The notes below the pieces were generated by a model. The model made no database searches and was not told the origin of the DNA. It saw only the letters and a program-made list of their open reading frames with translations. The translations under genes and the position numbers were made by a program. This document shows, one piece after another, positions 1,878 to 58,922 of a stretch of 64,000 bases of DNA. Each line of letters begins with the position of its first letter. Position 1 is the first letter of the stretch. This stretch comes from Niastella koreensis GR20-10. Its GTDB lineage: Bacteria; Bacteroidota; Bacteroidia; Chitinophagales; Chitinophagaceae. The stretch lies in contig NC_016609.1 in the NCBI RefSeq assembly GCF_000246855.1, positions 7,080,744 through 7,144,743 on the forward strand, written 5' to 3'.

Positions 1878-2008
1878 GCTGAAGGCTGAAGGCCGAAGGC
1901 GGGAGGCGGGAGGCGAAACGCTTAACGAGGAACGCGGAACGCAAAACACGAAAGCCAGAATACTAGGGAATTAGCATTTAGCGTTAAGCCTTCAGCGTTA
2001 AGCATTAA
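1878..2008. repeat. Heptamer micro-repeat island pair, nadE/gldB spacer
   Basis: The left island (1878-1947) holds ten consecutive 7-bp units of the type GCNNAAC/G (for example GCTGAAG, GCTTAAC) with no indel. The right island (1974-2008) holds five units of the type GCGTTAA. The arms are reverse-complementary: ACGCTGAAGGC at 1876-1886 pairs with GCCTTCAGCGT at 1988-1998. It sits between two divergent genes and ends 15 bp before the gldB ATG. Confidence 0.85.
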
Positions 2009-2022
2009 ACAATCATTCCAAG

Positions 2023-3039
2023 ATGAAACGAACTGGATTAGCACTGTTGATCATTGCCGGATTGTTTTCCTGCAAAGACAAAGACGTTCCCAATGTATCG
2101 AATATAAAGATCGACCTCACCGTAAAGCGGTTTGAACAGGATTTCTTTGCCATAGATACCAATCATATTATGACCTCCATGGAGCATCTGGGCGCCAAAT
2201 ACCCGCTTTTCCTGGGGGATTTCTTATATAACATCATGGAGCTGCCTGGCCTCAGCGATACCAGCCTGCAGGAACAGGCATTGCTGAAAAAATTCATAGC
2301 GGACTATAAGCCGGTTAAAGACTCGGCCGATGCCGTTTTCAAAAATTTCAGTGATATTGAAAAGGACGTGAAAAAGGGATTGCAGTTTGTTAAATATTAT
2401 TTCCCCGCTTATAAAACCCCTTCGCAGATCATCACCTACATTGGCCCCATGGAAGGCTACAGCGATGTGATTACCCGCGATGCGCTGGCCGTAGGGTTAC
2501 AGTTGCACATGGGCAATAACTACTCCTTATACAAAAGCAACATGGGCCAGGAAGTTTTTCCCGGCTACATTTCCCGCCGGTTCACCCCCGATTACGTTGT
2601 GGTGAACTGTATGAAGAATGTCATCAATGATATTTCGCCCGAAAAAAACGGCAGCCAGCCCCTGGTTGAACAAATGGTTGAAAAGGGAAAGCGGTTATAT
2701 GTGCTGGATAAAATATTACCCTTTACCCCAGATACGCTGAAAACCGGTTATACCGCCGCACAGCTGGCAGGATGTATAAAGAATGAAGGTCTTATCTGGA
2801 ATCACTTTCTTAGCCATAACCTGCTGTTCTCCATTGAACCGGCCGATATAAGACCATACATGGAAGAAGCGCCCAATACCCCGGAGATCACCGACCAGGC
2901 GCCCGGAGCCATTGGTGTTTTTGTTGGCTGGCAGATTGTAAAGAAATACATGTCCAAACACCCCGAACTCTCCTTAAATGAACTGTTGAATACCGATGCG
3001 AAGATGATTTTTGAGGAGAGTAAGTATCGTCCTAACTAG
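2023..3039 (+). CDS. gldB: Gliding motility lipoprotein GldB
   Basis: The 338-residue protein starts with a short hydrophobic signal ending in a lipobox (GLFSC, lipidated Cys17). The mature part continues with KIDLTVKRFEQDFF, typical of GldB. In Flavobacterium johnsoniae GldB is needed for gliding and is linked to the GldKLMN/type IX secretion machinery. It is expected at the cell envelope. No other gld or spr gene lies in this window, so the protein stands alone here. The start is fixed by the signal peptide. Whether the organism glides cannot be told from this gene alone. Confidence 0.88.
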   Translation: MKRTGLALLIIAGLFSCKDKDVPNVSNIKIDLTVKRFEQDFFAIDTNHIMTSMEHLGAKYPLFLGDFLYNIMELPGLSDTSLQEQALLKKFIADYKPVKDSADAVFKNFSDIEKDVKKGLQFVKYYFPAYKTPSQIITYIGPMEGYSDVITRDALAVGLQLHMGNNYSLYKSNMGQEVFPGYISRRFTPDYVVVNCMKNVINDISPEKNGSQPLVEQMVEKGKRLYVLDKILPFTPDTLKTGYTAAQLAGCIKNEGLIWNHFLSHNLLFSIEPADIRPYMEEAPNTPEITDQAPGAIGVFVGWQIVKKYMSKHPELSLNELLNTDAKMIFEESKYRPN

Positions 3040-3085
3040 AAGATTAGTTGTTAGGTGGCTTTGTTTTCATTTTAACCAGTCCCCT

Positions 3086-3205
3086 TATCAACGCTGTCAA
3101 CTCTATCAACTACCTACTATTTACCTCAATGCCTCACTTTAAGTCCTTGTGAACGTGTTAACCAGTTAACTTGTTAACCGGTCAACTGGTTAACAGATCA
3201 ACTAT
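3086..3205. repeat. 9-bp and 8-bp micro-repeat islands after gldB
   Basis: Three 9-bp units of the type TATCAACNN occupy 3086-3112. Six 8-bp units of the type TTAACCNG occupy 3158-3205 in exact register. The 9-mer word is the reverse complement of the GTTGATANN units found after argG at 12694-12729. The spacer separates the convergent gldB and YcxB-like genes, and the second island ends at the stop codon of the latter. Confidence 0.8.
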
Positions 3206-3681
3206 CTCTTCCCTATCTTCTCCCTCAACATCTCCCTAACTTTCTGTAAATCAGTAATATCCTTAAACGCATCCTTGGGAACCAGGAAAAAGGAACGGGC
3301 GTCGAAATAGAGGTGGAAAAAATAAGGGCTTTCTACAAAATAGCTGAATTTCTTCCAGTCCCAGCCTTTGGACCCCTTAGTGGTTTCCAGCATTACGCCT
3401 TCGCCTTCAAAATGCATGGTAAAATGGTCCTGAAAGGTGAGTGACCGCTTATAAATGCTGCTGGGCAGCAAGCGCCAGATAACCAGCATCAGCAGAAACC
3501 ATAAAAACGAGAAGATTAAAAACGAGATTGGCTGTATTTTCTTCAGCGCAAACAGTACCGCTGAAGCAATGGTAAATACATTGATCAATATCAAAAGGAT
3601 CTTGATTTCAGGACGCATTAAAAAGTGATACCGCAAGGCTTGAATTACCTGCTTTTTATCATAACCAAATTGAACTGTCAT
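3202..3681 (-). CDS. YcxB-like small membrane protein
   Basis: This 159-residue protein has two adjacent membrane helices (about residues 26-45 and 51-71) followed by a soluble C-terminal domain. That domain carries the pattern seen in the YcxB-like family (DFTMHFEGEGVML..., a central Trp-rich segment, then FFLVPKDAF). The family has no firmly known function. It is commonly a stand-alone inner-membrane protein with a cytoplasmic PH-like C-terminal domain. No operon partner is present. The assignment rests on overall layout and the FFLVPK-type motif, not on any catalytic residue. Confidence 0.65.
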   Translation of the reverse strand: MTVQFGYDKKQVIQALRYHFLMRPEIKILLILINVFTIASAVLFALKKIQPISFLIFSFLWFLLMLVIWRLLPSSIYKRSLTFQDHFTMHFEGEGVMLETTKGSKGWDWKKFSYFVESPYFFHLYFDARSFFLVPKDAFKDITDLQKVREMLREKIGKR

Positions 3682-4073
3682 TCAGTTTTCCCCCTATTAA
3701 GGCCGTAAAAGTAAGGATTCCGGCAATAGACAGGAATAAAACAGGGTTCAAATTAATGAACCCTGTCCAGCAGTGCACATGAAACGATCCCGCCTTAGCG
3801 GGAATGTCCTGTTTTCAGGGCAAAATTGTTCTTAATGGCTACACTTGAGGTTTAGTAATTCGTTTGGGCTAAATAGTGCAGAGGGCAAAAATTAATTCGT
3901 TTGCAAACCTACTATGGAAACCGGCGACCTGCAATACCACTTTGTGGTGGGGTGAAATTTGGAGAAAATTTAGTATAGTGCTGAATTTCAGTATTTATAG
4001 TCGAAATGGGAGGTAAACCCAGGGACTGGGGTAATCGGGTATTTTTGACTGGGAGGGCACCTATCACAAAAAT

Positions 4074-4106
4074 GCGCAGTAAACCCGGCAAACCGGTTTA
4101 CTGCGC
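4074..4106. other. Strong stem-loop, function unknown
   Basis: A perfect 12-bp inverted repeat (GCGCAGTAAACC with GGTTTACTGCGC) surrounds a 9-nt loop. Allowing one bulge, the stem extends to 14 bp with a CAAA tetraloop. No T run follows on either strand, so it is not a typical intrinsic terminator. Confidence 0.7.
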
Positions 4107-4360
4107 AAATGAATGAGTTTAATAGTTAAATGGATTTCTCATCGTACGCCCCGGCCACATTTAGCCCTGCCATTGGCGGCTTCATAGGGCGAAATAAACC
4201 GGGTGCAGGAGGCCAGAAAAATTAGGCAGGCAACTGCAAATAAAAGAGATCTCCATTTCATGTGCATAGGCTGGGTTTTAAGGATAAACGGATTTACAAT
4301 TCAGATTAATATTATAAAATATATAAACAAATGTGAAAGTAAGATAGGAATCTTTAAACC

Positions 4361-4590
4361 CCGGAAGGAAATGGCAAAACCGGGTGGGTTATCTCTTTTC
4401 CCGATGGGAATTTTAAAAACCCAACAGGAATTCGCTATTCCCGGCAGGTATTGGCAAAACCCGTTGGGAATTCTCTTTTCCTGGTGGGTTTTCTGTTTTC
4501 CTGGCAGGAATTCTCAAAACCTGTCAGGTATTATCAAATCCTGGTGGGAATTCTCTTTTCCTGGCGGGAATTCCAGATTCCTGTTCAGTT
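4361..4590. repeat. Degenerate 20-nt phased repeat array
   Basis: Eleven and a half units follow each other in exact 20-nt register with many substitutions and no indel. Each unit begins with a small dyad of the type CYGGYRGG, followed by AATT and then an alternating TTTTC or AAAAC end. Twenty is not a multiple of three, so the array does not encode a repeated peptide. Two helical turns of B-DNA are about 21 bp, so each dyad lies on nearly the same face. Confidence 0.9.
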
Positions 4591-4616
4591 TTGATCGAAA
4601 AATTTTATCGGGACCT

Positions 4617-4868
4617 CTCATTTTTCAAATTAATCCGCTCATATTTCAGATTGCCCGTATAATATTTCAAGTTTCCCTTTGCCTATTCCAATTCGGGGTG
4701 CGTGTTAATCAATATAGGGGTGCAATTATTCATTTTGCCAGGCTATTTTGCAAAACAAGTAACTCCATATTACAATTTGGGTAGCCCATTATGCAAATAA
4801 GCAGTCTCATTCTTCAATTGCTGAGGTTCCTTTTTCAAATTATGGATCTCATTAAATGAAAGACCTAA
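4617..4868. repeat. Degenerate 21-nt phased repeat array
   Basis: About twelve units with a 21-nt period (one 20-nt and one 22-nt unit in the middle) share the core ATTTTTCAAATT; the best unit is at 4617-4637. The array begins 27 bp after the 20-nt array but has a different, AT-rich consensus. The A/T tracts recur every two helical turns, a geometry that favours DNA bending. Confidence 0.85.
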
Positions 4869-4901
4869 TTGTAAAATTTATGCTTTTATAAACGCAATGC
4901 A

Positions 4902-4933
4902 ATAAAAAATCCGCCCATAAACATGAGCGGATT
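4902..4933 (-). terminator. Intrinsic terminator of nrdJ
   Basis: The stem AATCCGC (4908-4914) pairs with GCGGATT (4927-4933). On the minus strand a run of T follows (A run at 4904-4909 on the plus strand). It lies about 100 bp past the nrdJ stop codon. Confidence 0.75.
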
Positions 4934-5028
4934 GAGTTTTATAAAATATAACCGTCCAAAAAATCACATTAAGTTGGCTGTTGAGGCCAGTACGGACATT
5001 GGAGTGGGTCATTAACATTCAAGGTCTA

Positions 5029-8000
5029 TTAGCTGCAACCCATGCTATTACCGCAATTAAGGCATTTATAGCAGGTACCGCTACGGATGGTTATATGTCC
5101 GCAGGTATTACAGGCCGGCGCATCACTTTGCATGCTCTTCGCTGCTGCATTGATGGCATCCAGTCCTGCTTCTGCTTTTTTAACAGTGGCTTTTACGGGT
5201 TTTAAAGATTCTGCTTCTGGTGTTTTCGTTGGTTTACCGGGCACTACCCGTACATCACTCAATGGGGGAGTTTTTTTCTCATACTCCAGCGATGTGGGAA
5301 TTTCATCCCATTCATCTACTCCGGTATTCAGTACTTCGGGCCTGTCGAGCACGTGTACCAGGTCGGTTCTACCCAGGTATTCATACGCCAGGGCACGGAA
5401 AATAAAGTCTACAATGGAAGTGGTGCTCTTGATGTTCGGGTGATCGACCATACCAGCGGGTTCAAAACGCGTGAACACAAACTTCTCAACAAACTCTTCC
5501 AACGGCACGCCATATTGCAGGCCAATTGAAATAGCTATTGCAAAACAGTTCAGCATACTACGCATGGTAGCGCCTTCTTTTGCCATGTCGATGAAGATCT
5601 CCCCTACCGTTCCATCGCCATATTCACCGGTGCGTAAAAACAAAGCCTGTCCGTTTATTTTGGCCTTTTGTGTAAAGCCGCGGCGTTTGGCCGGTAAGGT
5701 TCTGCGTTCAACAATACGCGCCAGCTCCCGTTTCAGCTTGGTATCGGGCGATGCCTGAACACGTTTTTGTACTTCATCCAGCAACTCAGCAATAGTGAGA
5801 TTGCCCAGGTCAACAATGTTCGATTCCTGTGGGTCAGCGGCAGCAGTGGTTTCACTGGCCCCTTCTTCGGTTTTCTTCTTCTTGTCGCTCTTATTGCTCA
5901 GCGGCTGACTTAACTTGGAACCATCGCGATACAACGCGCAGGCCTTCAGGCCCAGTTTCCAGCTCATCATGTACGCATCGGCAATTTCTTCTACTGTTGC
6001 CTCATTGGGCAGGTTAATGGTTTTTGAAATAGCACCACTCAGGAAAGGCTGTGCGGCGGCCATCATTCTTATGTGGCCATGGGCGTGAATGTAACGTTGT
6101 CCCTTTTTACCGCACTTGTTGGCACAGTCAAAAACGGGCAAATGCTCGGCTTTCAGGAAGGGCGCTCCTTCAATGGTCATGGTACCGCAGATGTAATCAT
6201 TAGCAGCTTCCACTTCCTCATCTGTAAAGCCTAAAGCTTCAAGCAGGCTCCATTCAAAATTAAAATACTGCTCAGGTTTGAATCCCAGGCGTTGCAGGCA
6301 TTCTTCGCCAAGCGTGTAAACATTGAATACGAATCCTATTTCAAAGGCGGATGCTACGGCTGCATCCAGCTTCTTTATTTCTTCAGCTATAAATCCTTTC
6401 TCGCTTAATGTCTGGTGATTGATATGCGGTGCGCCAACAAAAGTACCGGCCCCTACTGCATATTTTACAATCGCCTCCATTTCGCGGGGTTGATAACCCA
6501 GGTTCTTCAACGCAGTGGGCACACTCTGGTTAATGATCTTGAAGTAACCGCCGCCACTGAGTTTTTTAAATTTAACCAGCGCAAAATCGGGTTCCACACC
6601 GGTGGTATCGCAATCCATTACCAGGCCAATGGTACCGGTAGGTGCAATCACCGTAACCTGTGCATTGCGATAACCATATTTTTCGCCTAACTGTACTGCT
6701 TCGTCCCATGCTTTGGTAGCGGCTTTCAGCAGGTAATCAGGACAATATTTTGCTTTTATACCCTGTGGCTTGATGTGCAGTTTTTCATAATCATCTGCAT
6801 CATAAGCGGCCAGGCGGTGGTTGCGCATTACCCGCAGCATGTCTTCGCGGTTCTCTTCAAAACGGCTGAAGGGTCCCAGGATGGAAGCCAGCTCGGCCGA
6901 AGTTTTATAAGCAATACCGGTCATGATAGCAGTGAGGGCGCCGGCAATACCGCGGGCTTCTTCACTATCATACGGGATGCCCATAACCATTAACATAGAG
7001 CCCAGGTTGGCATAACCCAAACCCAGCGTGCGGTAATCGTAGCTCAGTTGCGCTACTTCTTTTGATGGGAACTGCGCCATCAGCACAGATACTTCCAGCA
7101 CTACTGTCCATAAACGGCAGATGTACTCAAAGCCTTCCACATCAAATGTATTGGTAGCTTCGTTATAAAAACGGCGCAGGTTGGCCGATGCCAGGTTACA
7201 GGCCGTATTATCGAGGAACATGTATTCACTGCAGGGGTTGGAAGCATTGATGCGGCCGCCCTTAGGACTGGTGTGCCACTCGTTGATGGTGGTATCATAT
7301 TGCGTACCGGGGTCGGCACAACGCCAGGCCGCGTAAGAGATCTGGTTCCATACTTCTTTGGCCGGAATGCGTTTCATTACCCGTCCATCGGTTCTGGCCT
7401 TTAATTCCCAATCTTCACCCTTCTCCAGCTTTTCAAAAAATTCGTTGGAAATGCGGATGGAGTTGTTGGAGTTTTGTCCGCTCACCGTTCTGTATGCTTC
7501 GCCTTCGTAATCGCTGGGATAACCGGCAGCGATCAGCGCGCCTACTTTCTTTTCCTCTTCTACTTTCCAGTTAATAAAGTCCATGATCTCGGGGTGGTCC
7601 AGATCCAGACAAACCATTTTGGCTGCCCGACGGGTAGTACCACCGCTTTTGATGGCGCCTGCTGCGCGGTCACCGATCTTTAAAAAGCTCATCAATCCAC
7701 TGGAGGTTCCACCGCCGCTTAGTTTCTCCCCTTCGCCCCTGATGGTGGAGAAGTTGGTTCCTACCCCACTGCCATATTTAAAAATGCGGGCCTCACGCAT
7801 CCACAGGTCCATAATGCCACCGTCGTTAACCAGGTCGTCTTCAACACTTAAAATAAAGCACGCGTGTGGTTGCGGACGTTCGTATGCCGAGGTAGATTTT
7901 TTCAATTGGCCATCAACAGGGTCAACATAATAGTGCCCCTGTGGTTTGCCCTTGATATTATAGCTTTCAAACAAACCGGTATTGAACCACTGCGGGCTGT

Positions 8001-8397: not shown

Positions 8398-8502
8398 TAG
8401 TTAGTAAGTTTTTAACATGATGTAATCAGGGTGTTGGGAACGGGGGTAGAGAACGAAAATATCTTTCACTGGTCAATTTTCCGAACCAGAAATATGCACA
8501 GC

Positions 8503-8511
8503 TGTGGATAA
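8503..8511. promoter_or_regulatory. DnaA-box match in the nrdJ upstream region
   Basis: TGTGGATAA is a perfect reverse-strand match to the TTATCCACA DnaA box. It lies in the spacer shared by nrdJ and the divergent DUF2490 gene. A 9-mer like this is expected about once per 130 kb, so chance occurrence is quite possible. Confidence 0.35.
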
Positions 8512-8701
8512 AGGATGTGAAAAATACTAAGACGCAAGCTGGGTGTGACTTACTTGATTTTTGCACAGAATACGATGTAATGTTGATTACTTTTAGTAGG
8601 CTGTTTGTTAAAAAATCGTTATCTAATAAGGCTGCAAAAAACGGTTTCAGGTTACCCCCAAACAAACAATCATTAGGCAAATCTTCGTTTTCTTTGTGCA
8701 C

Positions 8702-9448: not shown

Positions 9449-9539
9449 TGGGCTGAAAAACAATAAACGGTAAAAGTTTCGGCACCTTATAGCCCCTTTG
9501 AAAAAGTTTTTGCATTTTTGTAGTAACCAATTGGCAAGC

Positions 9540-11446: not shown

Positions 11447-11463
11447 AAACAATTCTTGCGAAG

Positions 11464-12693: not shown

Positions 12694-12749
12694 GTTGATA
12701 ACGTTGATAGGGTTGATAGCGTTGATAAAGGAGTTTGACGTTTCACGAT
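12694..12749. repeat. 9-bp island and shared 17-mer before argC
   Basis: Four 9-bp units of the type GTTGATANN occupy 12694-12729. They are followed at 12733-12749 by GTTTGACGTTTCACGAT, a 17-mer found identically upstream of hemC (48789-48805). Confidence 0.85.
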
Positions 12750-12762
12750 CTAATTAATTAGT

Positions 12763-13789
<1,027 letters not shown>

Positions 13790-19228: not shown

Positions 19229-19335
19229 CTACAGATTTCAGGTTACAGGCTACAAGGCTTGATATTCAGAGAGTCTGACAATAATCAGCATGCTGCATTT
19301 GAAGCCATGTAACCTGCAACCTGTAACCTGCAACT
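19228..19335. repeat. Inverted heptamer island pair, argH/M28 spacer
   Basis: Four 7-bp units (type GTTACAG) occupy 19228-19255 and begin in the argH stop codon. Four units of the complementary type (TGTAACC, TGCAACC) occupy 19308-19335 and reach the stop codon of the convergent peptidase gene. The same words occur at 24.8 and 37.2 kb. Confidence 0.9.
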
Positions 19336-20665: not shown

Positions 20666-20790
20666 ATGCTGAATGCTGAACGCATAAGGCTTAACGCTTG
20701 TCTCCGCGATTTTGGAAATCTGCCAGCCGGCAGCATGCTCAGCGTTCGGAGGGTTGCGTTTAGTGTCGCGCGTTAAACATTCTGCGTTTT
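20666..20790. repeat. Inverted heptamer island pair before the LytTR regulator end
   Basis: Five units (types ATGCTGA and ACGCTTG) occupy 20666-20700. Seven units (type GCGTTNN) occupy 20742-20790 in unbroken 7-bp register and run into the stop codon of the response regulator. The word set matches the nadE/gldB and AraC spacers. Confidence 0.8.
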
Positions 20791-24796: not shown

Positions 24797-24879
24797 GTTA
24801 CAGGTTACAAGTTTCAGGTTACAGGGTTTTAGAATATCAAGCCTTGCAACATGGAACCTGAAACCTGTAACTTTTTTTT
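24797..24879 (+). terminator. Heptamer islands forming the dxs terminator
   Basis: Four units of type GTTACAG (24797-24824) and four reverse-complementary units of type TGNAACC (24845-24872) can pair into a long bulged hairpin, followed at once by eight T residues (24872-24879). Here the island pair clearly looks like a working terminator. Confidence 0.75.
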
Positions 24880-25594: not shown

Positions 25595-25691
25595 GTCGTG
25601 AATGTGAGTAGTGAGTAGTCAGTAGTGAGTAAGCTCGCAAATATTTAGACTTCTGAACAATTGGGAACCCACTCACTACTCACTACTGCCT
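25591..25691. repeat. Inverted heptamer island pair, GTGAGTA type
   Basis: About six units of GTGAGTA type (one with a 1-bp deletion) occupy 25591-25631 and include the stop codon of the upstream gene. Three complementary ACTCACT-type units at 25671-25691 reach the scpA stop codon. Confidence 0.9.
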
Positions 25692-29901: not shown

Positions 29902-29961
29902 AATTTTGAAGTGAATTGATTTCTACATTCAAAATTCTACATTCGATATTCAACATTTTAA
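29897..29961. repeat. Inverted heptamer island pair between the DMT transporter and frr
   Basis: Three units at 29898-29918 and five units of ATTCNNN type at 29927-29961 flank the convergent stop codons. A perfect 14-bp inverted repeat, TGTAGAATTTTGAA (29897-29910) with TTCAAAATTCTACA (29928-29941), results. It may terminate both genes. Confidence 0.85.
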
Positions 29962-37169: not shown

Positions 37170-37243
37170 CAGGTTCCAAGTTCCAGGTTATAGGGATTTC
37201 TTAATACATGTTTTCCCTGCAACTTGCACCCTGTAACCTGTAA
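37170..37243. repeat. Inverted heptamer island pair, CAGGTTC / CCTGTAA type
   Basis: Four units (types CAGGTTC and CAAGTTC) lie at 37170-37197, and four complementary-type units (CCTGTAA, CTTGCAC) at 37216-37243. The spacer separates two genes read in the same direction. Confidence 0.85.
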
Positions 37244-37348
37244 CAGCCGTTTCTTCCCTACCATCAAATAATTAAACCATTTAGCCATGTTAATGCTGTC
37301 AAGTTATCTAAATAGCTAATTTTCGAGTCAAATATTTAAACATACTAC

Positions 37349-39463: not shown

Positions 39464-39478
39464 ACTAGAATAAATAGA

Positions 39479-39507
39479 AAGCCCTGACCGTACGGTCAGG
39501 GCTTTTT
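39479..39507 (+). terminator. Intrinsic terminator after the DPP-IV-like gene
   Basis: AAGCCCTGACCG pairs with CGGTCAGGGCTT across only TA, giving a 12-bp near-perfect palindrome followed by T residues. It also protects the convergent DksA-like gene. Confidence 0.9.
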
Positions 39508-39583
39508 AATTATAATACGTTATTGGCATGAAACCGTCATTCCACCTACAAGCAGAATGATAACCAACCGATTAGGCAGACGA

Positions 39584-44040: not shown

Positions 44041-44068
44041 GTTCAAGGTTCAAGGTTCCTGGTTCAAA
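44041..44068. repeat. Heptamer island, GTTCAAG type
   Basis: Four units of GTTCAAG type in exact 7-bp register. The related words CAGGTTC and CAAGTTC occur at 37.2 kb. Confidence 0.85.
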
Positions 44069-44275
44069 GTTTTTCGTTTTAAGCTCTTTGCTCCAGTTCT
44101 AAGTTTCACCACTATGCACCATAGTATAACAGATAATGTACTGCTTTTGATTAAAAGCTTGCAAAGTGGGAACCGGCAAACCCCGACAGGTCGGGGCAGG
44201 CTGGCAGACGGCAAACGGCAAACATGGTTCGCGAATTTGTGATTAATAAACGATCTTGCGCCGCGGCATTTTCTT

Positions 44276-44439
44276 CACCTTTCACCTTTCACCTTTCACC
44301 TTTCACCTTTCACCTTTCACCTTTCACCTTTCGCCTTTCGCCTTTCACCTTTCACCTTTCGCCTTTCGCCTTTCGCCTTTCGCCTTTCGCCTTTCACCTT
44401 TCACCTTTCGCCTTTCACCTTTCGCCTTTCGCCTTTCGC
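44276..44439. repeat. Large heptamer tandem array, CACCTTT/CGCCTTT
   Basis: About 23 head-to-tail 7-bp copies differ only by A or G at position 2. Three reading frames stay open because the unit contains no stop, which explains the long spurious frames here. The near-identity of copies points to recent expansion by slippage. Confidence 0.97.
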
Positions 44440-44662: not shown

Positions 44663-44877
44663 AAAATCACGTTTGGCATAATTTATGGAACTATTTAGGT
44701 GCTCTTTACAAGAATGAAAAATGTTGAAAATAATAGCGAAGTAAAATGTGTGATTGAGTGATTTTTGGTACGATATTTTCTAAGTATTAAGTCCTTAACA
44801 CAAACGCTCTTAACAACGATTACTGTTTACCTCATTATATGAAAAACCTTTTCTACGGTTTAGGGTTTAGGGGTTAA

Positions 44878-44937
44878 AAAGGGGAGTAGTCCTGCTCCCC
44901 TTTCCTTTAAAATTCTAAAACAAAGGAAAGGTTTTTT
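44878..44937 (+). promoter_or_regulatory. Two mutually exclusive hairpins ending in a T run
   Basis: The first hairpin pairs AAAGGGGAG with CTCCCCTTT (44878-44903). The second pairs CCTTTCCTTT (44899-44908) with AAAGGAAAGG (44922-44931), followed by six T residues. They share 44899-44903, so only one can form, as in attenuators and riboswitch expression platforms. On the minus strand the first hairpin is itself followed by a T run. No plus-strand gene follows for 2.5 kb. Confidence 0.55.
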
Positions 44938-45645: not shown

Positions 45646-45715
45646 GATAATGTGCTAATGGGATAATGTGCTGCCTTCACTTCAACATTCAACATTCGAT
45701 ATTCAATATTCCCTA
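45646..45715. repeat. 16-mer and heptamer island between hemH and hemJ
   Basis: GATAATGTGCTAATGG at 45646-45661 recurs exactly at 53586-53601 (after hemB). Five 7-bp units of type TTCAACA fill 45681-45715 and contain the hemH stop codon. Confidence 0.85.
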
Positions 45716-46771: not shown

Positions 46772-46965
46772 TTTATTCCGAACGGCATGGCCAGTTAGCC
46801 CCGCCAGTGGCAGTTTTTACCACCGCATGACATAGTAATCTTACCTGCATTGCACCTCATTGATACCTTTATTCCTCTTAAATAGGTCCTCTTTGCTTCC
46901 CCGGCCCCCGGAGCTGAAGAGAGGTGGAACCGGGGTAGTTCCGGGGACCCAAAGAGGTAAATCAG

Positions 46966-47009
46966 AGGTTATTCCGAGGTGATTCCGTAGTGAATCCGAG
47001 GTGATTCCG
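46966..47009. repeat. Four 11-bp units, AGGTGATTCCG type
   Basis: Four 11-bp copies in register, differing at one to three positions, lie in the hemH/hemA divergent spacer. This is a longer-period member of the micro-repeat islands. Confidence 0.85.
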
Positions 47010-47028
47010 GGGTAAAAGTTGGGTAAAA

Positions 47029-48712: not shown

Positions 48713-48776
48713 GGTAAAAGGCAGACGGCAAACAATGGTAGCCCGATAGTTTTGAGTTAAAAATTATCGGAGACTT

Positions 48777-48804
48777 TTCACGTTTCACGTTTGACGTTTC
48801 ACGA
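48777..48804. repeat. Heptamer island, TTCACGT type, before hemC
   Basis: Four TTCACGT-type units in register. The 17-mer GTTTGACGTTTCACGAT (48789-48805) is identical to the one before argC (12733-12749). The island supplies the TTTG of the hemC promoter. Confidence 0.9.
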
Positions 48805-48837: not shown

Positions 48838-49806
48838 ATGAATAAAGTGATCCGCATTGGCACCAGGGAAAGTCAGCTTGCGGTATGGCAGGCTACACAA
48901 GTTCAAAACCTGCTTGCCCAACATGGCTTTGCCGCCGAACTGGTATATATTAAAAGTGAGGGGGATATTGATTTAAAGACCCCATTATACGAGATGGGCG
49001 TTCAGGGCATTTTTACCCGCAGCCTCGATATTGCCCTGCTTAACGACCGCATTGATATTGCCGTGCACTCCATGAAGGATGTGCCCACGCAATTACCCAA
49101 AGGCATCATTACAGCTTCCGTTTTAAAACGTGCTTCGTATAAAGACTTGCTTGTATATAAAATAGATGCTGAAGCCGGCAATCGACAATCGGCAACCGGC
49201 AATTTAAAAAACTCAGACTTCCCATTCACGACTGACGATTCACGATTGACGATCGCTACCAGCAGTATTCGCCGCAAGGCACAATGGCTGAACCGGTACC
49301 CGCACCACACCATCGACAACCTGCGCGGCAATGTAAATACCCGCTTAAAGAAACTGGCCGAGAGCCCCTGGAATGGCGCCATCTTTGCCGCGGCCGGACT
49401 GGAAAGAATTGGCTTACGTCCTGAACAGTCTGTTGAGCTGGATTGGATGCTGCCTGCACCCGCACAAGGCGCCATTGTGGTTGCCTGCCGCGAAAACTCC
49501 CCATACGTCTTTGAAGCCTGTCAGTTGTTCAACGATGAACCTACCGCCCTTTGCACCGCTATTGAAAGAGATTTTCTGCGTGCCTTACTCGGTGGTTGTT
49601 CTACCCCTATCAGCGCACTGGCAAACATCGTGAACGGTCAGGTCCATTTTGAAGGAAACATTCTGTCGTTAGACGGTAAAGAGAAAGCGACCATCGAAAA
49701 AACAACAGCTATCAATAACAGTAACAACCTGGGTACCATCGCCGCCAAAGAATTATTGGCGAATGGCGGCCAGGCAATCGCAGACCAGATCCGAAATGGC
49801 AAATAA
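48838..49806 (+). CDS. hemC: Porphobilinogen deaminase with a repeat-derived insertion
   Basis: It links four porphobilinogen units into hydroxymethylbilane. The 322 residues show RIGTRESQLAVWQA, the DIAVHSMKDVPT catalytic Asp region, SSIRRKAQWL and the dipyrromethane-binding Cys in LGGCSTPI. Residues 111-138 do not fit the family. They are encoded by AATCGGC-type and TTCACGA-type heptamers (49180-49252) that keep the frame. The insertion falls in a loop just before the TSSIRR motif, where length variation may be tolerated. Start ATG 48838; hemD overlaps the end. Confidence 0.93.
   Translation: MNKVIRIGTRESQLAVWQATQVQNLLAQHGFAAELVYIKSEGDIDLKTPLYEMGVQGIFTRSLDIALLNDRIDIAVHSMKDVPTQLPKGIITASVLKRASYKDLLVYKIDAEAGNRQSATGNLKNSDFPFTTDDSRLTIATSSIRRKAQWLNRYPHHTIDNLRGNVNTRLKKLAESPWNGAIFAAAGLERIGLRPEQSVELDWMLPAPAQGAIVVACRENSPYVFEACQLFNDEPTALCTAIERDFLRALLGGCSTPISALANIVNGQVHFEGNILSLDGKEKATIEKTTAINNSNNLGTIAAKELLANGGQAIADQIRNGK
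49180..49252. repeat. In-frame micro-repeats inside hemC
   Basis: Three AATCGGC-type units (49180-49200) and four TTCACGA-type units (49225-49252) lie inside hemC. Both words also occur in intergenic islands or in argC. Confidence 0.9.
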
Positions 49807-50497: not shown

Positions 50498-50511
50498 CAC
50501 CACTACATATT

Positions 50512-51552
50512 ATGCTGCAAAACGACCTGTTATTAAGAACACTGAAAGGAGAACAAGTTGAACGCCCACCGGTATGGATGATGCGCCAGGCTGGCCGGTA
50601 TTTACCCGAGTATATGGTACTGCGTGAAAAGTATGGCTTCTTTGAACGTTGCCAAACACCCGAACTGGCTTGCGAGATCACCATTCAACCGGTAGATATT
50701 ATTGGGGTAGATGCAGCCATCCTGTTTTCCGACATCCTGGTAGTACCACAGGCCATGGGTTTGGAAGTACAGTTGATAGAAAGCAAAGGCCCTTTGTTAC
50801 CTGAGCCTATTAAAAATATCAACGACCTCAACCGCGTGCGCGTGGCTGATGTAGATGAAACGCTGAATTATGTGTTTGACGCCATCAAACTCATTAAAAA
50901 AGAATTGAATGGCCGCGTTCCTTTAATTGGTTTTGCCGGCGCTCCCTGGACGCTGCTGTGTTATATGGTACAGGGCAAGGGCTCCAAAACATTCGATGAA
51001 GCCAAGATCTTCTGCTATACACAGCCTGAAGCAGCGCACAAGTTATTACAGATGATCACCGATACTACCATTGCTTACCTAAAAGGCCAGGTGAAAGCAG
51101 GTGTAGATGTAGTACAGATCTTCGATAGCTGGGGTGGTTTGCTGAGCCCCGATGACTTTGAGAATTTCTCTTTAAAATACATTCGCCAGATCGTGGCTGC
51201 ATTGAAAGACGAAGTGGCTACCATCATCTTTGCAAAAGGCGCCTTCGGCTCACTGAATGCCATGGCTGCTACCGGAGCACATGGCCTGGGTATCGACTGG
51301 TGTCTTACACCGGCGATGGCCCGCCAACTGGCAGGCCCCCATGTAACGCTGCAGGGTAACTTTGATCCCGCCAAATTGTTATCACCCATTCCGGTGATCC
51401 AGAAAGAGGTAAAGAAGATGTTGAACGATTTTGGCGGACAACGGCATATTGCCAACCTGGGTCATGGTATTTTACCCAATGTACCGGTTGACCATGCCAG
51501 GGCATTTGTTGATGCGGTAAAGCAGGCTGAACGCTCAACGCTTAACGCTTAA
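50512..51552 (+). CDS. hemE: Uroporphyrinogen decarboxylase
   Basis: It removes four carboxyl groups from uroporphyrinogen III to give coproporphyrinogen III. The 346 residues begin with the signature [17 protein letters not shown], then the FSDILV substrate site and GFAGAPWTL. The C-terminus ends in AERSTLNA, and these last codons plus the stop are made by four AACGCTT-type heptamers (51530-51557), so the natural end of the protein has been replaced or extended by the repeat. The catalytic core is intact. Confidence 0.95.
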
Positions 51553-51557
51553 CGCAA
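51530..51557. repeat. Heptamer island covering the hemE stop codon
   Basis: Four AACGCTT-type units in exact register begin inside hemE and include its stop. The word recurs in the nadE/gldB, LytTR and AraC spacers. Confidence 0.9.
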
Positions 51558-51607
51558 ATTGTATTTGTTATAGATTACAGCTTGAGGCTATATTCATCTT
51601 TAACGAT

Positions 51608-52570: not shown

Positions 52571-52599
52571 CCAATCTCTAAATTTAGAAATTATCAGAT

Positions 52600-53574: not shown

Positions 53575-53632
53575 TGTGCTGATCTGATAATGTGCTAATG
53601 GAATACACACAGCTCCAAAAGAACTCACGATT

Positions 53633-54919: not shown

Positions 54920-55006
54920 ATTAAATAGTACTGTTTGTAAATGATATTGGCAAACTCTTAAGCGGGATATACCAGCTAATCATTTAAGCTACTAAATAAT
55001 TAAATT

Positions 55007-55045
55007 AAGCCGTTGATGGATTAACACCCGGATACGGCTTTTTTT
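55007..55045 (+). terminator. Terminator of the heme gene group
   Basis: AAGCCGT (55007-55013) pairs with ACGGCTT (55034-55040) around a 20-nt loop, followed by five T residues. It lies 88 bp after hemL and 34 bp before the next gene. Confidence 0.7.
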
Positions 55046-55078
55046 ATTAATATACACCAGTAAACCTCAAAGCTTCTT

Positions 55079-56272
55079 ATGCGTCCATTTACACAACGAC
55101 TGGCCTCCATCGATGTATTCAGGGCACTCACCATGCTGCTGATGATCTTTGTTAACGACCTGGGCACCCTCAAAAACATTCCGCTATGGCTGGAACATAC
55201 CAAGGCCAATGAAGACGGAATGGGTTTGGCAGATACCGTGTTCCCTGCTTTTCTTTTTATTGTGGGTCTTTCTATTCCATTTGCCATTGGCAACCGCTGG
55301 GCAAAAGGAGCATCTCAAAGTAATATTCTTGGCCATATTTTAATCCGTTCTTTCGCGCTGCTGGTAATGGGTTTCTTTCATGTGAACCTGGAGAATTATA
55401 ATCACACAGTCGCCTTATTACCAAGAACGGTTTGGGAGATCTTGTTGACGATCAGTTTCTTTTTTATCTGGCTCGATTATCCATCTACACTTTCTAAAAG
55501 AAAAAAGATAATTCTGCAAGGTATTGGCGCCGGTCTGCTGGTGTTTTTAGCTGCTGTATATAAAGGCGAAAAAGACGGACAAACTGTTTGGTTGCACCCG
55601 CAATGGTGGGGCATACTGGGTTTAATTGGCTGGTCGTACCTGTTGGCTGCGTTGGTATTTCAGTTCTCAAAGGGAAGACTATCCATCTTAATTGGCGGAT
55701 TTCTTTTCTTCACCTTATTTAACATTGCCACTAAAGCAGGCTGGCTGCATATGCTGGATCCCATCAAACACTATATCTGGATCGTAGGTGATGGTTCTTT
55801 GCCTGCGCTTACTATGGCAGGTATTGTTATAGGTGTACTGTATTCCTCATTCGCTGAAAAGGAACAGTACAACAAATGTTATTGGCTCTTCTCACTGTTA
55901 GGAATACTAATGTTAGCGGGTGGCTTTGCCATCAGACCTTTAGGCGGCGGCATCTCAAAAATACATGCTACGCCATCATGGGTTGCCATTTGTACTGGTA
56001 TCAGTATCTTATTTTTTACGGGATTGATCTGGCTGGTTGACCGCAAAAAGAAACAACAATGGTTTGCAATTATAAAACCGGCCGGCACCTATACGCTTAC
56101 TGCATATCTGCTTCCATACATAATATATCCATTGGTTCAAGCAGCAGGCTTTTATTTACCTGTCTTCTTATTAACCGGCGCAGTGGGCCTGGTTAAAACA
56201 TTTGTATTCGCATTGCTGATTATTATGCTTGCGGGATTATTGGCTAAGTGGCGCATTCGATTAAAGGTGTGA
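55079..56272 (+). CDS. DUF5009 / heparan-glucosaminide acetyltransferase-like membrane protein
   Basis: A 397-residue inner-membrane protein with about ten to eleven helices. It starts QRLASIDVFRALTMLLMIFVND, a motif of the acyltransferase-like family that includes heparan alpha-glucosaminide N-acetyltransferase and DUF5009. The early DTVFPAFLFIVGLSIPF and late PLGGGISKIHATPSW segments fit too. It may move acyl groups onto glycans across the membrane. No partner gene is adjacent. The role is inferred from family only. Confidence 0.8.
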   Translation: MRPFTQRLASIDVFRALTMLLMIFVNDLGTLKNIPLWLEHTKANEDGMGLADTVFPAFLFIVGLSIPFAIGNRWAKGASQSNILGHILIRSFALLVMGFFHVNLENYNHTVALLPRTVWEILLTISFFFIWLDYPSTLSKRKKIILQGIGAGLLVFLAAVYKGEKDGQTVWLHPQWWGILGLIGWSYLLAALVFQFSKGRLSILIGGFLFFTLFNIATKAGWLHMLDPIKHYIWIVGDGSLPALTMAGIVIGVLYSSFAEKEQYNKCYWLFSLLGILMLAGGFAIRPLGGGISKIHATPSWVAICTGISILFFTGLIWLVDRKKKQQWFAIIKPAGTYTLTAYLLPYIIYPLVQAAGFYLPVFLLTGAVGLVKTFVFALLIIMLAGLLAKWRIRLKV

Positions 56273-56307
56273 CCTGTACAACCGTTAATGTTAATGTGTT
56301 CTAAATA

Positions 56308-56359
56308 ATGAAAACACAAAGGCATATAAAAGAATTTATATGTATCTTTGTGTTTTCAT
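56308..56359. repeat. Long imperfect hairpin containing a -7-like box
   Basis: ATGAAAACACAAAG (56308-56321) and CTTTGTGTTTTCAT (56346-56359) form a perfect 14-bp inverted repeat. CATATAAA/TTTATATG adds eight more pairs around an AGAA loop. The right arm carries TATCTTTG (56343-56350), a perfect TAnnTTTG match on the plus strand. Confidence 0.75.
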
Positions 56360-56399
56360 AGGATAAGGTTTAATGGTTAATGGTATTTGATTAGTACAG

Positions 56400-56427
56400 C
56401 CTTCTCGATTTATCGGGAAGGTTTTTT
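56400..56427 (+). terminator. Intrinsic terminator overlapping the PepSY gene end
   Basis: CCTTCTCGA pairs with TCGGGAAGG around TTTA, with one T-G wobble, and six T residues follow. It faces the plus strand while its right half codes for the end of the minus-strand PepSY protein. Confidence 0.75.
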
Positions 56428-57534
56428 CTTTCTTCTACCCCACCAGATCATAAACCCGGTAACGGGTAAACTGGCGGCTATCAATGATGCAAAGAATGCC
56501 AGGATCTTTCCGGGCAAACCCCCAATAGCCCCCACATGAATATCATAGTTCATTCTAAGTAACTTATCGGCTCCCTTCGCATCTTTAAACCGGCCATAAA
56601 TATGATTCACCGGTAATTCTTTCAATGTATACTGATCAAAGAAACGGTAATCGGTTTTCCAATATGTATCAGCATCTGTATTTACTGCCACTTCAATGGC
56701 CGACTTATCGCCAGCAGGAAAATGCATTTCAATGGTTGCGGCATCTCTATGTTCCTGTTGCATCTGCCTCCACAATTTATCAACCGGCAAAGCTGTTGCC
56801 CTGGTTATCTTAGTTGTATCTGATAATGGCTCCTGGTAGGTCAATGATTTTTTGCCACCAGCCGTTTTATAAATGGCATTGGCCAGTAATTGCCAGCCAA
56901 AGATCAAACCGGTAATGGCCATGAAAATAACAACCCAGGTCATATAAAAGCCAGCCACGTTGTGCAGGTCGTAATTCTTCCGGCGCCAGGCTGCATTCCA
57001 TTTTATGGAGAAGCGTTGTTTGGCCGCAGCTTTATTCCTCGGCCACCATAAAATAATGCCGGTTATCATCATCACCACAAAAATGATGGTAGCATAAATG
57101 GTAATGCGCTGTCCAACAGCTTCGGGTAACCATAAATAATAATGCCCCATCAACACGACCCTGAAAAAGTCGCGATCCATATTCTTTACCTCCAGTACTT
57201 CACCACTATAGGGATTCGCATAAATGGTATAGTAATATTCGTTACCTGGTTCAAAATTGTAAAAGGTTGCCGCCACTGCCTCGTTGCGGGCGCCATACAA
57301 TACACTGTGCAGGTGTTTTCCCGGCAATTGTTTTTCAGCAATATCCTTTAGTTGGGTCGGTTGTAAATAAGGGGTGTTTTGCGGTGCTACATAGCGGTAA
57401 GCCTTTCCTGTTAGTTTTGAAATCTCAGCCTGAAATGCATACAAACAGCCGGTTACGGCAATAATAAAAACAACAATGCCCGAGGTAAATCCCAGCCACA
57501 AATGAACTTTTCCAATAATCTTTTTAACGGTCAT
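56410..57534 (-). CDS. PepSY-associated transmembrane protein (iron/siderophore reductase-like)
   Basis: A 374-residue inner-membrane protein with four helices: one at 14-36, two in the middle (about 140-160 and 190-215) and one near the end (about 340-362). Conserved histidines lie next to helices (KVHLWLGF, GHYYLWL, DLHNVAG, YDIHVGAIGG), the pattern of PepSY-TM proteins that often carry heme and reduce ferric siderophores. It lies downstream of an AraC regulator on the same strand and next to the heme locus, which suggests iron use. The end is read through the terminator of the convergent neighbour. Confidence 0.85.
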   Translation of the reverse strand: MTVKKIIGKVHLWLGFTSGIVVFIIAVTGCLYAFQAEISKLTGKAYRYVAPQNTPYLQPTQLKDIAEKQLPGKHLHSVLYGARNEAVAATFYNFEPGNEYYYTIYANPYSGEVLEVKNMDRDFFRVVLMGHYYLWLPEAVGQRITIYATIIFVVMMITGIILWWPRNKAAAKQRFSIKWNAAWRRKNYDLHNVAGFYMTWVVIFMAITGLIFGWQLLANAIYKTAGGKKSLTYQEPLSDTTKITRATALPVDKLWRQMQQEHRDAATIEMHFPAGDKSAIEVAVNTDADTYWKTDYRFFDQYTLKELPVNHIYGRFKDAKGADKLLRMNYDIHVGAIGGLPGKILAFFASLIAASLPVTGFMIWWGRRKKKPSR

Positions 57535-57614
57535 AACAGGACATACAAACCTATTATATAACCGAATTTAGACTATTACTCAAAAAGGAAATTGATTTAC
57601 GCGAAGAGGAAAAC

Positions 57615-57703
57615 CGCTGAAGGCTGAACACATGGCTCGCGCATTCTCAGCATTCACTTCTATTATCTGTATTTCGCGTTAAGCGTTCTGTGTTAAGCAT
57701 TAA
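57615..57703. repeat. Heptamer islands between AraC and PepSY genes
   Basis: Two GCTGAAG-type units (57615-57628) and four GCGTTAA-type units (57676-57703) repeat the word set of the nadE/gldB spacer. The right island reaches the AraC stop codon. Confidence 0.8.
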
Positions 57704-58653
57704 TGAAGCAGCAATTCACACGGTTTCAACCCGGTTTGCTTTTTAAAAGCAGTGGAGAAGTGTGAGATAGAAGAATAGCCCAGCATCATAGATACTTCGG
57801 TTACAGTTAACCCTTTCTCATATAATAAATACCGTGCATGCTCCATGCGCTGGCTTTGGTAGAAGTCGAAGATGGTAGTGCCGTATAATTCTTTGAATCC
57901 CTTTTTCAGATAGCATTCATTGATGGCTACTTTACGGCTCAGTTCTTTAATAGTAATAGGCTCGCCAATATGTTGCAGTAAGATCTCCCGGGCTTTAATG
58001 ATCTTTTCGCGATCGGCTTCGTTAGCCAGGAATTTGCACTGGAAAGGTTCGATTTCTTTTTCATCGCCCAGCATACATTCGAGGCTGTATAACAACAGCA
58101 TCTGGCTTTGGCCATTGATAAAGATATTTTCCAGGCTATCTGTATAAGTATGTCCTAACAGGGCTTCCAGCACCTGGCGGGTGCGGCCGCATAAAGGAAG
58201 GATTTTCGAGAAAGAAGAAGGATGCACAAACTGTAATACCTCATCGGTAATGGTCTTCAGTTTACCGGGTTTTACAAATTGCGACAGGTGCACAGATAAG
58301 AAACGGAAGGTCATCACATCAATGCTTTCTACTCTTTCGGCACAGGCCTTTGATGTATTCAGTTTACACTGATCGCATTCCACCTCTTTCTGATTACAAT
58401 ACATATTACCCGAAATACAAAAACGAAGCTCCACATAGTTCTCCTGCGGCGCCGACTTTTTGTAATGATATACCAGCACCCCGGTATCCTCAATATTCCA
58501 TTGCGGATGTTTCCGGTATCTTTTAATGGCATACTGAACCGAACCAGGCATCTGTTGCTCTTTTTCCTGCAACAGCTGTAACTGATCGTGCATGATCGGC
58601 TGCTTGTAAGCCAGTGAAAGTATATCAGGAGGATTATACATATTCGGGTGCAA
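57700..58653 (-). CDS. AraC family regulator with a four-cysteine cluster
   Basis: The 317 residues (Met1 or Met5 start) have an N-terminal sensor half and a C-terminal AraC DNA-binding domain (about 215-317) with the two helix-turn-helix motifs (ITIKELSRKVAINECYLKKGF and SMMLGYSSISHFSTAFKKQTG, seen as patterns). The sensor half contains four Cys in CNQKEVECDQCK...C with spacing C-x6-C-x2-C-x7-C, which could bind a metal or iron-sulfur cluster. Lying just upstream of the PepSY gene, it may be an iron-responsive activator like PchR. The metal binding is inferred. Confidence 0.85.
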   Translation of the reverse strand: MHPNMYNPPDILSLAYKQPIMHDQLQLLQEKEQQMPGSVQYAIKRYRKHPQWNIEDTGVLVYHYKKSAPQENYVELRFCISGNMYCNQKEVECDQCKLNTSKACAERVESIDVMTFRFLSVHLSQFVKPGKLKTITDEVLQFVHPSSFSKILPLCGRTRQVLEALLGHTYTDSLENIFINGQSQMLLLYSLECMLGDEKEIEPFQCKFLANEADREKIIKAREILLQHIGEPITIKELSRKVAINECYLKKGFKELYGTTIFDFYQSQRMEHARYLLYEKGLTVTEVSMMLGYSSISHFSTAFKKQTGLKPCELLLH

Positions 58654-58724
58654 ATTTACAGGTACAACGTTAAAATTCCCAATGGTTTGTCGGTTCGCTG
58701 GTCATGGAAATGTCAGAATACGGC

Positions 58725-58922
58725 TGTAAGCTTTAAGCCATAAGCTGTAAGCAAATACAGTTATAATCTGCAAGCCATGCAGTTGCATCATAAACCGGGA
58801 ACAGTAACGTACCGGAAATTAAAATTGTTTGCTGAACATTTAAAAAGGTGACCAGTGAGACTGACCACTAATAACTGCCGCGCAGCGGTGTATTGCTTAT
58901 AGCTTACAGCTTGCAGCTTGAG
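58725..58922. repeat. Inverted heptamer island pair, GTAAGC / GCTTACA type
   Basis: Four TGTAAGC-type units (58725-58752) and four GCTTACA-type units (58895-58922) are reverse complements. They bracket the spacer between the AraC start and the M23 peptidase stop. GATTACA and GCTTGAG also occur near 51572-51585. Confidence 0.9.

What the first reader, a model, noticed from the sequence alone, without database searches (positions are those of the whole stretch)
1878..58922. Window-wide family of heptamer-phased micro-repeat islands, mostly as inverted pairs
At least 17 islands of about four degenerate units in strict 7-bp register fill nearly every larger spacer (1.9, 19.2, 20.7, 24.8, 25.6, 29.9, 37.2, 44.0, 45.7, 48.8, 51.5, 57.7 and 58.7-58.9 kb, and in genes at 13.1 and 49.2 kb). 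Sister islands use 8-, 9- or 11-bp periods. Words differ between loci, but period and copy number (about four) are kept. The two ends of a spacer usually carry reverse-complementary words. Cyanobacterial STRRs are heptameric too, but I know of no description of this inverted, word-switching form. It may reflect a copying or slippage mechanism, a mobile micro-element, or mRNA 3'-end signals.
Basis: partly seen in the sequence, partly recalled or inferred. Interest (0 to 1): 0.85.

Follow-up and report, generated by a model that had tools for sequence, protein, structure and literature searches.

The report
Paired heptamer repeats in Niastella spacers
The gaps between genes of this soil bacterium carry many short runs of a 7- or 8-letter DNA word, often facing a reversed copy of the same word, which look like products of a copying error that works through DNA hairpins rather than like gene signals.

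Summary
The islands are real, genome-wide and far above chance. In 123 kb of spacers (window, 20 other stretches of its genome, five relatives) self-match segments number 75 at lag 7, 34 at lag 8, 7 at lag 9 and 11 at lag 11. Lags 3-6, 10, 12 and 13 give 0-1, shuffles 0-0.7. "Nearly every larger spacer" is overstated: 9 of 26 spacers of at least 100 bp. Inverted partners are specific: 66 of 147 arrays have one in the same spacer, 5 a direct one. Orthologous spacers exchange words or lack arrays. Period 7 also leads inside genes; seven extra bases in an array break argC here but in none of five relatives. Heptamer arrays of about four units, inverted pairs and stop-side location are already published for Xanthomonas, with one word (PMC4692102), so this is a many-word variant of a known kind. 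Best reading: heptamer slippage plus copying between hairpin arms, mostly tolerated. There is no G-U signature of an RNA hairpin. Genomes without the hairpin nuclease SbcCD carry about sevenfold more arrays per kb, a lead that weakens to p 0.053 when counted by genus.

The parts
1878..1953 (.). period-7 array, divergent spacer (GCNGAAG/GAACGC words)
   Evidence: lag-7 score 29, 0 of 500 shuffles
1971..2011 (.). inverted partner array (TTAGCGT words)
   Evidence: lag-7 score 14
3148..3202 (.). period-8 array GTTRACNN, convergent spacer
   Evidence: lag-8 score 14.5
12694..12727 (.). period-9 array GTTGATAGN
   Evidence: lag-9 score 17.5
13094..13124 (.). AATCGGC x4.4 inside argC; seven bases more than five relatives, frame broken
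   Evidence: score 24; alignment, and length 1027 against 1017-1032 in five relatives, all divisible by 3
19236..19257 (.). left arm TTTCAGGTTACAGGCTACAAGG
   Evidence: pairs with the right arm in the predicted fold; position
19308..19334 (.). right arm TGTAACCTGCAACC array, convergent spacer
   Evidence: lag-7 score 12.5; absent in N. vici, where the computed gene ends lie 8 bp apart
20666..20699 (.). period-7 array (ATGCTGA/ACGCTTA)
   Evidence: score 12
24797..24825 (.). left arm GTTACAG array
   Evidence: score 12
24851..24871 (.). right arm ATGGAACCTGAAACCTGTAAC followed by T8
   Evidence: fold; sequence
25604..25631 (.). left arm GTGAGTA array, convergent spacer
   Evidence: score 16
25671..25687 (.). 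right arm ACTCACT array
   Evidence: TRF
29921..29957 (.). period-14/7 array TTCTACATTCAAAA
   Evidence: TRF score 53; 0 of 500 shuffles
37217..37244 (.). right arm CTGCAACTTGCACCCTGTAACCTGTAAC (weak here; N. vici and Longitalea have strong arrays in this spacer)
   Evidence: 2 of 500 shuffles; orthologues
44041..44071 (.). GTTCAAG array
   Evidence: score 13, TRF
44274..44439 (.). longest array, 23.7 units TTCRCCT
   Evidence: score 141.5
45681..45711 (.). TTCAACA array at a gene end
   Evidence: score 16.5
46953..47013 (.). period-11 array
   Evidence: lag-11 score 22.5
48773..48803 (.). ACGTTTC array just before a stretch upstream of the next gene that is conserved in the relatives
   Evidence: score 16.5; orthologues
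49176..49253 (.). two arrays (CGGCAAT; ACGATTC) in a variable loop of hemC
   Evidence: scores 12.5 and 11.5; words differ in four of five relatives, N. vici shares CGGCAAT
51526..51555 (.). GCTTAAC array at a gene end
   Evidence: score 18
58724..58752 (.). GCTGTAA array
   Evidence: TRF; 0 of 500 shuffles
58891..58920 (.). partner array TACAGCT/TGCAGCT
   Evidence: score 15.5

Best explanation
The islands are short heptamer and octamer repeats produced by replication slippage whose step is 7 (less often 8, 9 or 11) nucleotides, coupled to DNA hairpins. One arm of a spacer hairpin is extended by slippage; when the strand folds back, that arm serves as template or primer for the other, so the same word appears reversed about 50 bp away. 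Later slippage homogenises each arm separately, so the word of a spacer drifts or is replaced over species time. Most arrays are tolerated rather than selected, which is why they are far denser in spacers, with a lean towards stop codons, than in genes. Shown: the spectrum, the inverted pairing, the turnover, the longer array-bearing spacers, the seven extra bases in argC. Inferred: hairpin templating, the enzyme that sets the step, neutrality, and a restraining role of the SbcCD hairpin nuclease.
For: Spectrum limited to 7, 8, 9 and 11, with 0-1 segments at 3-6, 10, 12 and 13. After masking arrays, exact runs of 9 or more: lag 14 25 against 1.3, lag 16 10 against 1.2, lags 4-6, 10 and 13 0-1 against 0.8-1.5. 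Period 7 leads inside genes although it breaks frame: 11 segments (14: 8; 24 and 39: 5; 9: 3; 3 and 12: 0), codon shuffle 0 at lag 7. Inverted partners 66, direct 5, of 147 arrays; median gap about 48 bp. Units resemble neighbours in the same arm (0.85) more than the partner arm (0.74). Array-bearing orthologous spacers are longer in 18 of 20 sets, median +60 bp. Arrays of the window are found again in 50% (N. yeongjuensis, of 14) down to 20% (N. vici, of 10) of orthologous spacers. Seven extra bases in argC. SbcD-positive genomes: 9 arrays in 948 kb, 34 genomes; negative: 144 in 2100 kb, 75 genomes; two or more arrays in 2 of 34 against 21 of 75, Fisher p 0.010. SbcC-like matches (E 1e-20, none over the curated cut-off) occur in the same 12 family genomes as SbcD, and not in this genome or the 28 others. 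A control gene, hsdR, shows no association, p 0.52.
Against: Word recurrence within a genome (7.8% of word pairs match at 6 of 7, shuffled 2.0%) and fixed cores with two variable columns (81% of variant cells in two columns, random 62%) are not predicted by plain slippage and would fit a binding site. 78 of 147 arrays have neither an inverted nor a direct partner at score 12. The in-register match between arms is only slightly better than at shifted registers (0.74 against 0.69), so unit-by-unit copying is not shown. Small excesses in masked spacers also at lags 12, 15, 20 and 29 (3, 3, 4 and 6 against 0.3, 0.8, 1.0 and 1.5). The SbcCD association is not corrected for phylogeny: the 34 positives include 6 Hymenobacter and 5 Sphingobacterium, and counted by genus it is 2 of 25 against 20 of 72, p 0.053. 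It is absent in the class sample (1 of 5 positive, 3 of 15 negative with two or more arrays), not significant in the wide sample (p 0.15), and absent for genomes with inverted arrays (4 of 34 against 16 of 75, p 0.29). Many SbcD-negative genomes have no arrays.
Confidence: 0.46

Rival explanations
1. Functional mRNA 3'-end hairpins: the paired arrays fold in the transcript and act as terminators or as blocks against 3'-5' exonucleases.
For: Arrays lie within 10 bp of a stop codon in 27% of 163 measurements, random 10%, with no such bias at starts (9% against 8%); about half as dense in divergent spacers. RNA fold z-score median -2.4 for 71 array spacers against -1.4 for 100 controls. One arm is followed by T8 at 24.87 kb.
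Against: Mismatches in arms of co-directional spacers are 14 G-U-type against 33 A-C-type, opposite to RNA pairing selection on the sense transcript; elsewhere 9 against 7. In spacer 39464-39583 a short terminator-like hairpin is present in all six genomes, while array hairpins stand beside it in three by eye, two over threshold. Arrays occur in genes and divergent spacers.
Confidence: 0.17
2. Arrays of binding sites for a DNA- or RNA-binding protein family with about 7-8 nt per protomer: fixed 5-6 nt core, 2-3 free positions.
For: Variation concentrated in two columns; words recur within the genome and, less, across genera; a 7-column model fits better than column-permuted words.
Against: Many different cores; words replaced between sister species in orthologous spacers; patchy presence among genera of one family.
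Confidence: 0.16
3. A micro-mobile element or ectopic conversion spreads arrays between spacers.
For: Same words at many loci; array-free orthologous spacer in N. vici.
Against: Middles of arrays with the same word look unrelated by eye; edges of GTAG/CGTC type not clearly enriched (16 of 156, random 11.6); arrays overlap coding ends rather than standing as inserted blocks.
Confidence: 0.07
4. Ordinary heptamer slippage alone, with inverted pairs arising because existing terminator hairpins are the seeds that slip in both arms.
For: Heptamer excess is general in bacteria (PMC4679880 and PMC4692102 citing Mrazek 2007); period-7 arrays also in a Phycisphaerales contig.
Against: Independent slippage of two arms would not keep both arms on one word while the word changes between species (inverted match of 10 or more in the own spacer for 64% of 87 arrays, in the orthologous spacer of another species for 26% of 379 comparisons).
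Confidence: 0.14

Closest known systems
GGGAATC heptamer repeats of Xanthomonas (Rehm et al. 2015, PMC4692102; passages and sections 10 and 16 read)
   Same: 7-bp units, most often four units, degenerate positions, 89-93% intergenic, near the upstream ORF end, few between divergent ORFs, 70 and 75 inverted pairs, sequence variation between species at the same genes.
   Different: One G-rich word with quadruplex capacity; here many different words, pairs sharing their own, plus periods 8, 9 and 11; words change between species.
Long simple sequence repeats of 5-11 bp (Mrazek et al. 2007; known to me through PMC4679880 section 3 and passages of PMC4692102; the paper itself recalled only)
   Same: Heptanucleotides the commonest class in most genomes; polymerase footprint proposed as cause.
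   Different: No pairing or word exchange is mentioned in what I read.
TAACTGA direct repeats of Beggiatoaceae, some Cyanobacteria and Bacteroidetes (MacGregor 2015, PMC4679880; passages and section 3 read)
   Same: Heptamer direct repeats, mostly few copies, intergenic, scattered phylogeny.
   Different: One word, mostly upstream of start codons; one inverted case in the main genome.
Cyanobacterial STRR heptamers (recalled; PMC4692102 mentions three heptanucleotides in Calothrix)
   Same: Tandem heptamers.
   Different: Inverted pairs not among what I recall or read; [quoted passage not shown]
REP/BIME palindromes (PMC3733652, search listing only; the rest recalled)
   Same: Extragenic, hairpin-forming.
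   Different: REPs share a palindrome with GTAG/CGTC tags; tandem heptamers are not part of that description.

Membership tests
Heptamer long simple sequence repeats (LSSR5-11) | tandem unit of 5-11 bp beyond chance, 7 commonest | tested here: met
   75 at lag 7, 34 at lag 8, shuffles 0.3 and 0
Heptamer long simple sequence repeats (LSSR5-11) | mostly intergenic, in a large genome | tested here: met
   75 in 123 kb of spacers against 11 in 675 kb of gene interiors; genome 9.03 Mb. Lifestyle not tested
Xanthomonas-type inverted heptamer repeats | about four units | tested here: met
   median 4.1 of 96
Xanthomonas-type inverted heptamer repeats | two arrays in inverted orientation close together | tested here: met
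   66 inverted against 5 direct of 147
Xanthomonas-type inverted heptamer repeats | single G-rich word GGGANTN able to form a G-quadruplex | tested here: not met
   words listed: many cores, few with GGG runs (read by eye)
REP elements | GTAG or CGTC tag at the palindrome edge | tested here: not met
   16 of 156 arrays, 11.6 expected at random positions
REP elements | cognate Y1 transposase (RAYT) | not tested
   no search made
Intrinsic terminators | RNA hairpin under pairing selection (G-U tolerated) | tested here: not met
   14 G-U against 33 A-C type in co-directional spacers, 9 against 7 elsewhere
Intrinsic terminators | U tract after the stem and a mapped 3' end | not testable with these tools
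   no transcript data; U tracts not counted, T8 seen at one arm by eye

The most novel reading that the evidence does not exclude
A distinct mutational engine writes genes' flanks in many bacteria: a hairpin-templated copying reaction with a fixed 7-8 nt step that creates, homogenises and swaps the words of both arms together, and that the SbcCD hairpin nuclease normally suppresses; lineages that lack SbcCD, as most sampled genomes of this family do, are rewritten by it.
Probability: 0.24. Interest if true: 0.78.

Novelty: new variant of a known kind. Interest (0 to 1): 0.57.

Why it matters
Why heptamers are the commonest long simple repeats in bacteria has had, in what I read, only a polymerase-footprint guess since 2007. 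Here the step size, the inverted pairing, the turnover across sister species and a seven-base event in a gene can be measured in one genus, and a candidate restraining enzyme, SbcCD, can be tested genetically. If right, much intergenic DNA of these genomes is a by-product of one reaction, and hairpins at gene ends should not be read as regulatory without test.

Tried and rejected
Rfam on the window: no match at gathering scores. MutS loss as cause: MutS was over the cut-off in all 21 genomes tried. Genome size: rho 0.19 over 109 genomes, p 0.046, a weak co-factor. G-C and A-T flips between units as a sign of inverted copying: C-G 64 and A-T 49 against A-G 117 and C-T 69 at period 7, and C-G only 7 at period 8, not decisive. 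TAGGGTT at 44854 dropped: part of a conserved small ORF; it is still among the 51 words. 57.7 kb not accepted. Literature searches that returned nothing on the inverted, many-word form.

Selection of samples: L036 and L040 were chosen near pattern hits; they are left out of the 18-stretch count but are in the pooled counts and. Relatives' stretches were chosen by synteny. Family genomes: 20 of the 29 listed besides this one, with large contigs. Class: 20 of the 26 others with a match. SbcD-positive: 10 of the 11 not yet sampled, G128 left out. 10 further negatives were picked for large contigs; two share a genus with another sampled negative (G129 with G015, G132 with G018). Of the 74 loci L138-L211, 50 went into, mostly short, did not. 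L141 (the same genome as G082, by identical coordinates) was dropped from the joint count; L138, by coordinates the genome of G037, was not, and leaving it out gives 2 of 34 against 21 of 74, p 0.010. Gene calls are my own crude caller.

Full report
What was checked. The window is positions 7080744-7144743 of a single-contig genome of 9,033,684 bases. A self-match scan (match +1, mismatch -1.5, score 12 or more) at each lag was run on spacers defined by a simple codon-usage gene caller. In the window's 41 spacers lag 7 gives 9 segments, lags 8, 9 and 11 one each, and shuffles none; in 18 roughly evenly placed 20-kb stretches lag 7 gives 17, lag 8 17, lag 9 4, lag 11 2 and all other lags up to 13 0-1, shuffles 0-0.2. 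Pooled with five syntenic relatives and the two biased stretches (864 kb, 490 spacers) the counts are 75, 34, 7 and 11 at lags 7, 8, 9 and 11, and 0-1 at lags 3-6, 10, 12 and 13.

Anatomy. Arrays have about four units. Word families tend to have their own period: GTTRACNN, TAATNNGA, GATTTNGA and AGGCANNN at 8, GTTGATAGN at 9, and many at 7 such as TTACAGG, GGTSAAT, GGCARAC, GCTTAAC and TAGTGAG. After masking the arrays, exact runs of 9 or more remain in excess at 14, 16, 21, 22, 7 and 11, so weaker and dimeric arrays exist too; small excesses stand at 12, 15, 20 and 29. Within arrays of at least 4.5 units, 81% of variant cells fall in two columns at period 7 (random 62%, 28 arrays) and 75% at period 8 (random 58%, 13 arrays). 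Words recur: 7.8% of 1275 word pairs in this genome match at 6 of 7 positions, against 2.0% for letter-shuffled words; against other lineages the observed share is 1.5-7.2%, with nulls near 2%.

Inverted pairing. Of 151 arrays, 46% have a reverse-complement match of score 12 or more in their own spacer; in array-bearing spacers from other sequences it is 4%. Direct partners are rare: 64 arrays have only an inverted one, 3 only a direct one, 2 both, 78 none, of 147. The median gap is about 48 bp. Identity is 0.85 between neighbouring units in an arm and 0.74 between arms at the best register, 0.69 at the best shifted register (51 pairs).

Evolution. Gene order is largely conserved over the six genomes, but spacers differ. 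In the spacer at 29.9 kb three species use GATTTNGA, this genome TTCTACATTCAA, and N. soli has GTAGGA-like and GTTGATA-like words. At 48.8 kb the right arm is TTTCACG in three species, ATTGCCG in one and ATTCACC/ATTGACC in two. At 19.2 kb N. vici has no array and the computed gene ends lie 8 bp apart, while the others share TTACAGG or TTACCGG, so words can also persist. An array's inverted match is 10 or more in its own spacer for 64% of 87 arrays, and in the orthologous spacer of another species for 26% of 379 comparisons. Array-bearing spacers are longer than array-free orthologues in 18 of 20 sets.

In genes. Gene interiors (675 kb) hold 11 lag-7 segments against 0 in a codon shuffle, and 3 at lag 9. 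In argC the relatives carry two natural copies of ATCGGCA-like sequence, and the window has seven more bases, shifting the frame; the five relatives are open to the end. In hemC one loop carries arrays whose words differ in four of five relatives, N. vici sharing CGGCAAT. A period that breaks reading frames is hard to explain as selected there, and points to a mutational origin.

Function tests. Arrays sit within 10 bp of a stop in 27% of 163 measurements, random 10%, not near starts, and are about half as dense in divergent spacers. Array spacers fold more stably than controls, median z -2.4 (71) against -1.4 (100), as expected from any inverted repeat. Mismatches between arms in co-directional spacers are 14 of G-U type and 33 of A-C type, elsewhere 9 and 7 (genus set plus L162, G018, G132 and G085), so there is no sign of RNA-level pairing selection on the sense transcript. 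In the convergent spacer at 39.5 kb a short terminator-like hairpin is present in all six genomes while array hairpins stand beside it in three by eye, two over threshold. I therefore put the terminator reading second.

Breadth. In 20 genera of the family (40 kb each, one 36 kb) lag 7 gives 50 and lag 8 10 spacer segments, with at most 4 at any other lag from 4 to 13; the distribution is patchy. In 20 other families of the class it is 5 and 4 (shuffles 2 and 0). The 80 loci, genus members included, give 60 at lag 7, 15 at 8, 20 at 9 and 15 at 11, with 2, 5, 3 and 12 at 5, 6, 10 and 12, so outside the genus the spectrum is less clean; a Phycisphaerales contig has several heptamer arrays with inverted partners.

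SbcCD. Since paired arrays form hairpins, I asked whether the hairpin nuclease SbcCD is present (its action on hairpins is recalled knowledge). This genome and five of its genus have only weak matches under the cut-off, and 84 of 97 family genomes have no match at E 1e-20. In the family, 12 SbcD-positive genomes hold 2 arrays in 477 kb and 28 negative ones 106 in 1116 kb; in the class sample 5 arrays in 5 positive and 8 in 15 negative genomes; in the wide sample 2 in 18 and 30 in 32. Jointly, two or more arrays occur in 2 of 34 against 21 of 75 (p 0.010), but genomes with inverted arrays do not differ (p 0.29). Counted by genus it is 2 of 25 against 20 of 72, p 0.053; ancestry is otherwise not corrected. 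SbcC-like matches are found in the same 12 family genomes, none over the curated cut-off. hsdR, a patchy control gene, is not associated (p 0.52). This is a lead, not a proof.

Known and new. PMC4692102 (passages, sections 10 and 16 read) describes heptamer repeats in two Xanthomonas genomes with four units as the commonest number, degenerate positions, an intergenic and upstream-ORF-proximal location, few between divergent ORFs, inverted pairs, and sequence variation between species. PMC4679880 (section 3 and passages read) reports that heptanucleotides were the commonest class in most genomes of the 2007 survey by Mrazek and colleagues, with the polymerase footprint as the proposed reason. 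PMC4060949 (passages read) notes that mismatch repair drops off for longer loops. So the kind is known. What I did not find in print (searches named above) is the many-word form in which both arms of a spacer share a word that differs between spacers and between species, and the SbcCD link. The window is a new variant of a known kind.

Noticed in passing
window 12763-13789: argC is frameshifted by seven extra bases in a heptamer array; five relatives have it intact. Natural mutation or assembly error undecided.
   Followed up: partly
window 44839-44900: Conserved small ORF MKNLFYGLGFRG (44839-44877) followed by a terminator-like hairpin (44881-44900), nearly identical in all five relatives and in L156.
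   Followed up: partly
window 49160-49270: hemC carries a hypervariable loop made of heptamer arrays, with different words in four of five relatives, while the surrounding protein is conserved.
   Followed up: partly
window 4427-4583: Imperfect 20/60-bp repeat (GGAATTCTCTTTTCCTGGC unit, TRF score 168) in the 3682-5028 spacer, not of the heptamer type.
   Followed up: no
window 44274-44439: 23.7-unit TTCACCT/TTCGCCT array, about six times longer than the usual island.
   Followed up: no
L171: A Phycisphaerales (Planctomycetota) contig carries heptamer arrays with inverted partners of the same kind.
   Followed up: partly
family sample: 84 of 97 genomes of the family show no SbcD at E 1e-20; the gene is patchy across genera.
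   Followed up: partly
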